Shown one piece after another: positions 62,304 to 62,514 of a stretch of DNA of 64,000 nt. The notes under the pieces are model-generated. The model had not been told where the DNA came from and ran no database searches. It saw nothing but the letters and a program-made list of their open reading frames with translations. Every line of letters begins with the position of its first letter. Within the stretch, counting starts at the first letter, position 1. The stretch covers positions 1 through 64,000 of the forward strand of contig LJSY01000014.1 of NCBI GenBank assembly GCA_001314805.1, given 5' to 3'. The position numbers were made by a program, and so were the translations under genes. Source of the DNA: Rhodobacteraceae bacterium HLUCCO18 (GTDB lineage Bacteria; Pseudomonadota; Alphaproteobacteria; Rhodobacterales; Rhodobacteraceae).

Positions 62304-62514
62304 GCGTTGAGCTCGTTGTGTTTGGCCTGTTCGAGCTCAACGCTCCTAAGTGCCTGTTTCGGAAGCCTTGTTGAGCTTGTTGAGCATGTTGAGCCTGGTA
62401 TAAGAGCTCTGAGAGTGAGACCGGCCCAGGGTCGGAGGGCGGTGGGGTCCGGGGGCGGCACGAGTTCGGCAGATAATATACGGACTATGCTCAACTACGC
62501 TCAACAAGCTCAAC
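62304..62514. repeat. GTTGAGC iteron array, candidate replication origin
   Basis: GTTGAGC on + at 62306, 62370, 62379, 62388; complement GCTCAAC at 62335, 62489, 62499, 62508. Confidence 0.9.

What the first reader, a model, noticed from the sequence alone, without database searches (positions are those of the whole stretch)
62304..62514. Two-sided GTTGAGC iteron array downstream of the PrimPol-VapE gene: probable replication origin
Seen: eight GTTGAGC copies in ~210 bp. Three are head-to-tail at 9-bp period (TTGTTGAGC TTGTTGAGC ATGTTGAGC, 62368-62394). Three are inverted at 9-10 bp period (62489-62514). One pair forms a perfect 12-bp inverted repeat, GCGTTGAGCTCG (62304-62315)/CGAGCTCAACGC (62332-62343). 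An AT-rich stretch, AGATAATATACGGACTAT, sits beside the inverted set. Established: SaPI origins have short repeats on both sides of an AT-rich region, recognised by the island's own initiator. Inference: this is the element's ori, bound by the 59922-62246 protein.
Basis: partly seen in the sequence, partly recalled or inferred. Interest (0 to 1): 0.82.

Follow-up and report, generated by a model that had tools for sequence, protein, structure and literature searches.

The report
Two-sided replication origin of satellite-like island
A roughly 15.6-kb island in a Rhodobacteraceae bacterium carries, just after its own replication gene, the clustered short DNA repeats that this protein most likely uses to start copying the island; it is a new case of a known kind of origin, and related islands show the repeats changing letter together, apparently in step with one amino acid of the protein.

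Summary
In detail: eight exact GTTGAGC heptamers lie at 62306-62514. All eight copies in the 15,556-bp island sit there, and no shuffle of the island puts more than five copies of any 7-mer in such a stretch. The island is flanked by 48-bp att repeats in tRNA-Asn and reads int, xis, PrimPol-PriCT2-VapE rep, this region, terS. All six full-length Rep homologues found (59-93% identical) have the same array just downstream of rep: an outer pair, a TGTTTCGG box, three tandem repeats of about 9-bp period, a gap with an AT-rich stretch, then three inverted repeats. Many more distant VapE genes have the same two-sided layout with other heptamers. In Tritonibacter (L040), nine of ten GTTGA copies of its close relative L036 have become GTAGA (P = 4.5e-8). 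The Rep DNA-binding domains of the two differ at one internal residue (Gly to Ser in the wing), while the TerS N-terminus is identical and Xis does not track the change. Best explanation: a Rep-bound iteron origin like those of SaPIs and Gram-negative PICIs. Nothing was shown experimentally. New member of a known kind; the natural specificity switch is the most interesting part.

The parts
57347..57394 (.). attL: 48-bp direct repeat of the 3' part of tRNA-Asn(GTT); identical attR at contig position 72855-72902, beyond the window, next to the intact tRNA
   Evidence: blastn 48/48; tRNA-Asn at L003:12856-12930
57535..58659 (+). tyrosine integrase
   Evidence: Arm-DNA-bind_3, Phage_int_SAM_1, phrog_1 E 7.8e-33
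58787..59068 (+). excisionase/AlpA-type HTH_17 protein
   Evidence: PF12728 E 2.7e-14, phrog_66
59568..59918 (+). second small HTH_17-like protein directly upstream of rep
   Evidence: weak HTH_17 E 0.022; conserved in L035-L040
59922..62246 (+). PrimPol-PriCT2-VapE replication initiator (Rep), 774 aa
   Evidence: PF09250, PF08707, PF05272 E 1.8e-71; best solved structure 7pds, PriRep1 with dsDNA
62052..62210 (+). C-terminal winged-helix domain of Rep (residues about 711-763), proposed iteron reader; residue G750 is codon 62169-62171
   Evidence: AlphaFold2 secondary structure; covariation
62304..62343 (.). outer pair: perfect 12-bp inverted repeat holding iterons 62306-62312 (+) and 62335-62341 (-)
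62355..62362 (+). TGTTTCGG box, invariant in all seven origins
   Evidence: alignment A2
62368..62394 (+). left inner array: three tandem iterons, 9-bp period
62471..62488 (.). AT-rich stretch AGATAATATACGGACTAT, candidate melting site; within the fifth least stable 30-bp place of the element
   Evidence: ATATA core conserved
62489..62514 (-). right inner array: three iterons in opposite orientation, 10- and 9-bp spacing
62924..63559 (+). terminase small subunit homologue (TerS)
   Evidence: phrog_4044 E 3.7e-9

Best explanation
The region 62304-62514 is the replication origin of a 15.6-kb satellite-like island. After excision, the Rep made by the gene just upstream (PrimPol plus VapE/AAA+ helicase plus C-terminal winged helix) binds the GTTGAGC iterons through the winged helix. 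The two inner arrays face opposite ways across about 94 bp, so each can seat one Rep assembly, probably a hexamer; together they melt the AT-rich stretch beside the right array, load two helicases in opposite directions, and the PrimPol domain primes. Shown here: the array, its conservation, its tie to Rep, and the concerted change of iterons with a Rep wing residue. Inferred: binding, hexamer seating, melting and origin activity.
For: Cluster far beyond chance and confined to this intergenic region. Same layout behind all six full-length Rep homologues. Two-sided heptamer arrays with 9-10 bp period and opposite orientation, with different heptamers, in most of the 17 of 42 tested VapE loci (some loci duplicated) whose downstream 7-mer cluster exceeds shuffles. 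L036 versus L040: 9 of 10 GTTGA copies carry the same T-to-A change, P = 4.5e-8, while their Rep C-terminal domains differ by G745S (G750 in the window protein) plus the last residue. L038, the other Ser Rep, also has GTAG iterons; the five Gly Reps have GTTG. TerS residues 1-109 are identical in L036, L037 and L040, and Xis is identical in L037 (GTTG) and L040 (GTAG). Closest solved structure is 7pds, PriRep1 with dsDNA, Foldseek E 1.2e-25. Literature: PICI origins lie just 3' of rep, with two iteron sets flanking an AT-rich region, and pri-rep-ori of EcCICFT073 replicates a plasmid (PMC6092414); the C-terminal domain of Cch2 binds its putative origin (PMC7581432).
Against: No binding or replication data for this family. 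A large group of distant VapE genes (about 37% identity; L009, L012, L050, L051, L053-L056, L058-L060) has no exact iteron cluster in 800 bp downstream. The Gly/Ser rule rests on seven close sequences that are not independent. The gap is mostly GC-rich, so melting is assigned only to an 18-bp stretch. The isolated winged-helix model found no significant solved match.
Confidence: 0.9

Rival explanations
1. The repeats are a packaging (pac) site read by the adjacent TerS, not an origin.
For: terS starts about 410 bp downstream, and TerS proteins read specific pac sites (PMC6092414).
Against: The array persists where TerS is only 46% identical (L039) or not detectably related (L038), while Rep is shared. 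Iterons switched between L036 and L040 although TerS residues 1-109 are identical. The array abuts rep in every case.
Confidence: 0.04
2. The repeats are an operator for a regulator of the rightward (terS) operon, read by Xis/AlpA, the second HTH protein or Rep itself.
For: They lie between rep and terS; one weak minus-strand promoter-like site overlaps the right array. A double role (origin and operator) is not excluded.
Against: Xis is identical in L037 (GTTG) and L040 (GTAG), and the second HTH protein shows no change unique to L040. Eight sites in two opposed arrays is unlike a simple operator. No terminator, plus-strand promoter or RNA family found.
Confidence: 0.05
3. A real origin, but a relic: the island is immobile and the array is no longer used.
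For: No induction data; no second TerS of this kind, so no obvious helper by this test, in the host genome.
Against: Rep has no internal stop, att repeats are perfect, and eight heptamers are exactly identical. A 93% identical Rep in another genome keeps the same array.
Confidence: 0.15

Closest known systems
Origins of Gram-negative PICIs (EcCICFT073 and other E. coli islands; PMC6092414 Fig. 2)
   Same: Immediately 3' of the rep gene; two sets of short iterons around an AT-rich stretch; int, xis, rep, ori order
   Different: Alphaproteobacterial host, PrimPol-VapE fusion, GTTGAGC heptamer at 9-bp period, extra outer inverted pair and TGTTTCGG box; no replication test
Staphylococcal pathogenicity island (SaPI) rep-ori; PriRep1 (PDB 7pds)
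   Same: VapE-family helicase with C-terminal DNA-reading domain; origin just downstream of rep; iterons
   Different: About 23% identity to PriRep1; different iteron; function shown for SaPIs, not here
SCCmec Cch2 and its three-iteron putative origin (PMC7581432)
   Same: C-terminal domain binds short direct repeats downstream of its gene
   Different: Only three iterons; separate polymerase and helicase genes

Membership tests
Iteron origin of the SaPI/PICI kind | Located immediately 3' of the initiator gene | tested here: met
   First iteron about 60 bp after the rep stop; same placement in L035-L040
Iteron origin of the SaPI/PICI kind | Two sets of short iterons on both sides of an AT-rich region | tested here: met
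   Two opposed inner arrays 94 bp apart with an 18-bp AT-rich stretch in the gap; the rest of the gap is GC-rich
Iteron origin of the SaPI/PICI kind | Cognate Rep binds the iterons through its C-terminal domain | not testable with these tools
   Only indirect: covariation of iterons with the Rep wing
Iteron origin of the SaPI/PICI kind | Drives plasmid replication with Rep | not testable with these tools
   Needs a cloned rep-ori assay
Phage-inducible chromosomal island (PICI) | About 15-kb island with att site, int, xis, pri-rep, ori, often terS | tested here: met
   48-bp att repeats, 15,556 bp, gene order int-xis-rep-ori-terS
Phage-inducible chromosomal island (PICI) | No phage structural or lysis modules | tested here: inconclusive
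   Only 10 of the island's right-hand ORFs were scanned with PHROGs; no capsid, portal or large terminase found; one weak tail-fibre-like hit E 4e-5
Phage-inducible chromosomal island (PICI) | Induced, packaged or interfering with a helper phage | not testable with these tools
   No helper known; no second TerS of this kind in the host genome
Phage-inducible chromosomal island (PICI) | Gram-negative type: one transcription direction | tested here: inconclusive
   int to terS all rightward; DUF2958 and the methylase lie on the other strand in the right part

The most novel reading that the evidence does not exclude
A single residue of the Rep wing (Gly versus Ser at window position 750) sets whether the third iteron base is read as T (GTTGA) or A (GTAGA), and whole origins have been rewritten copy by copy to follow it, giving islands in related hosts mutually orthogonal origins.
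Probability: 0.35. Interest if true: 0.6.

Novelty: new member of a known kind. Interest (0 to 1): 0.42.

Why it matters
It puts the SaPI/PICI style of rep-ori into a group of Rhodobacteraceae islands and shows that the two-sided, 9-bp-period layout is shared while the heptamer changes freely. The L036/L040 pair is a natural experiment: near-identical modules whose iterons nearly all changed at one base while the Rep DNA-binding domain changed at one internal residue. That makes the question of how initiator and iterons change together without losing replication directly testable with a few mutants.

Tried and rejected
A first pattern search across 397 genomes used a pattern that does not match the window itself, so its zero result means nothing. 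A corrected pattern found nothing in IMG/VR, and four protein-based scans there found one PrimPol-only relative at most. Plasmid and phage records hold only partial relatives. In one search loci on the minus strand were read in the wrong orientation; one search replaces it. Loci L079-L081 proved to be the same sequences as L036-L038. Fold search of the isolated C-terminal domain gave only non-significant winged-helix regulators. RNA and terminator explanations were checked and dropped. The pac-site reading was tested by comparing TerS across relatives and rejected.

Full report
Observation. Within the element the heptamer occurs eight times, all here. Shuffled elements and shuffled intergenic regions never exceed five copies of any 7-mer in such a stretch, and it is the densest 7-mer cluster of the 80 kb examined.

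Setting. A 48-bp perfect direct repeat (57347-57394 and contig 72855-72902) matches the 3' part of tRNA-Asn(GTT), which is intact at the right end. Other genomes of the genus carry the same tRNA gene region. The island is therefore about 15.6 kb. Its rightward genes are a tyrosine integrase, an AlpA/Xis-type HTH protein, two small ORFs, a PrimPol-PriCT2-VapE protein, the repeat region, and a small-terminase homologue. The right part carries a C5 cytosine methylase, a Vsr endonuclease and an HNH-type protein as likely cargo.

Homologues. A scan of GTDB genomes gave six full-length Rep homologues, all in Rhodobacteraceae (L035-L040, 59-93% identity). All six have an array immediately downstream of rep: an outer pair of repeats, a TGTTTCGG box that is invariant, three tandem repeats at about 9-bp period, a gap of about 80-100 bp, a conserved ATATA stretch, and three repeats in the other direction. 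In L038 some copies are degenerate. The window's 93% relative L035 keeps all eight copies of GTTGAGC.

Broader family. For 42 tested VapE loci from Rhodobacteraceae and other Alphaproteobacteria (some duplicated between two searches), 17 have a 7-mer cluster downstream of the gene that exceeds 40 shuffles. In most of the cases inspected the cluster has the same shape, two opposed runs of two or three heptamers at 9-10 bp period, 65-139 bp apart, but a different heptamer: CCGGACC, ACCCTTC, GCACCAC, GCTCCAC, GTCACCA, GTCCCAC, GTGACTA, GGTTCAC. One group with near-identical C-termini (L009, L012, L050, L051, L053-L056, L058-L060) shows no such cluster within 800 bp, so the rule is not universal among distant relatives.

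Who reads the repeats. L036 (Thalassovita) and L040 (Tritonibacter) share a module at 92% identity. Of ten GTTGA copies in L036, nine read GTAGA in L040; with 43 differences in 330 positions this has a hypergeometric probability of 4.5e-8. The Rep proteins differ at 23 of 761 residues, but in the C-terminal winged helix only at Gly745Ser and, beyond it, the final residue. The TerS N-terminal 109 residues are identical in L036, L037 and L040; Xis is identical in L037 (GTTG) and L040 (GTAG); the second HTH protein has no unique change in L040. The only other Ser-type Rep with DNA context, L038, has GTAGG iterons; the five Gly-type Reps have GTTGA. A more distant Gly-type locus, L070, has GTTGAA-like repeats by eye, not above shuffles. 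In 41 Reps the residue is Gly in 20, Ser in 18, Thr in 2 and Asn in 1. In the AlphaFold2 model it lies in the first wing strand (745-753) that follows the recognition helix 730-742.

Mechanism. The closest solved structure is 7pds, PriRep1 with dsDNA, found by sequence and by fold. SaPI Reps are published as self-loading helicases that read iterons with their C-terminal domain just downstream of rep (PMC7581432). Gram-negative PICI origins have two iteron sets flanking an AT-rich region and support plasmid replication with rep (PMC6092414). I infer that each inner array seats one Rep assembly, that the AT-rich stretch at 62471-62488 (within the fifth least stable place of the element) is melted, and that bidirectional replication follows.

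Verdict. Ordinary in kind, well supported in identity: an iteron origin of the SaPI/PICI type. Membership of the island in the PICIs is met on anatomy, but helper dependence and induction are untested. The most interesting part is the natural iteron switch.

Noticed in passing
contig positions 70188-72729 (L003:10188-12729), beyond the window: Likely cargo of the island: C5 cytosine methylase (PF00145), HNH/type-IV-like nuclease and Vsr endonuclease, a restriction-modification-like set.
   Followed up: partly
62355-62362 and the same place in L035-L040: TGTTTCGG box just 5' of the left array is invariant in all seven origins and does not change when the iterons switch; role unknown, perhaps a host factor or a second Rep contact.
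   Followed up: partly
L009, L012, L050, L051, L053-L056, L058-L060: A group of Rhodobacteraceae VapE proteins with near-identical C-termini has no iteron cluster within 800 bp downstream, although its relatives L061 and L066 have eleven copies each.
   Followed up: no
L061 and L066: Two related VapE origins have their copies at almost the same positions but different heptamers (GTCACCA and GTCCCAC), a second possible case of concerted iteron change.
   Followed up: partly
Roseobacter phages RDJL Phi 1, RDJL Phi 2 and RDJL6: Their primases share the PrimPol half of this Rep at 65-68% identity but not its VapE half, suggesting module exchange between satellites and phages.
   Followed up: no
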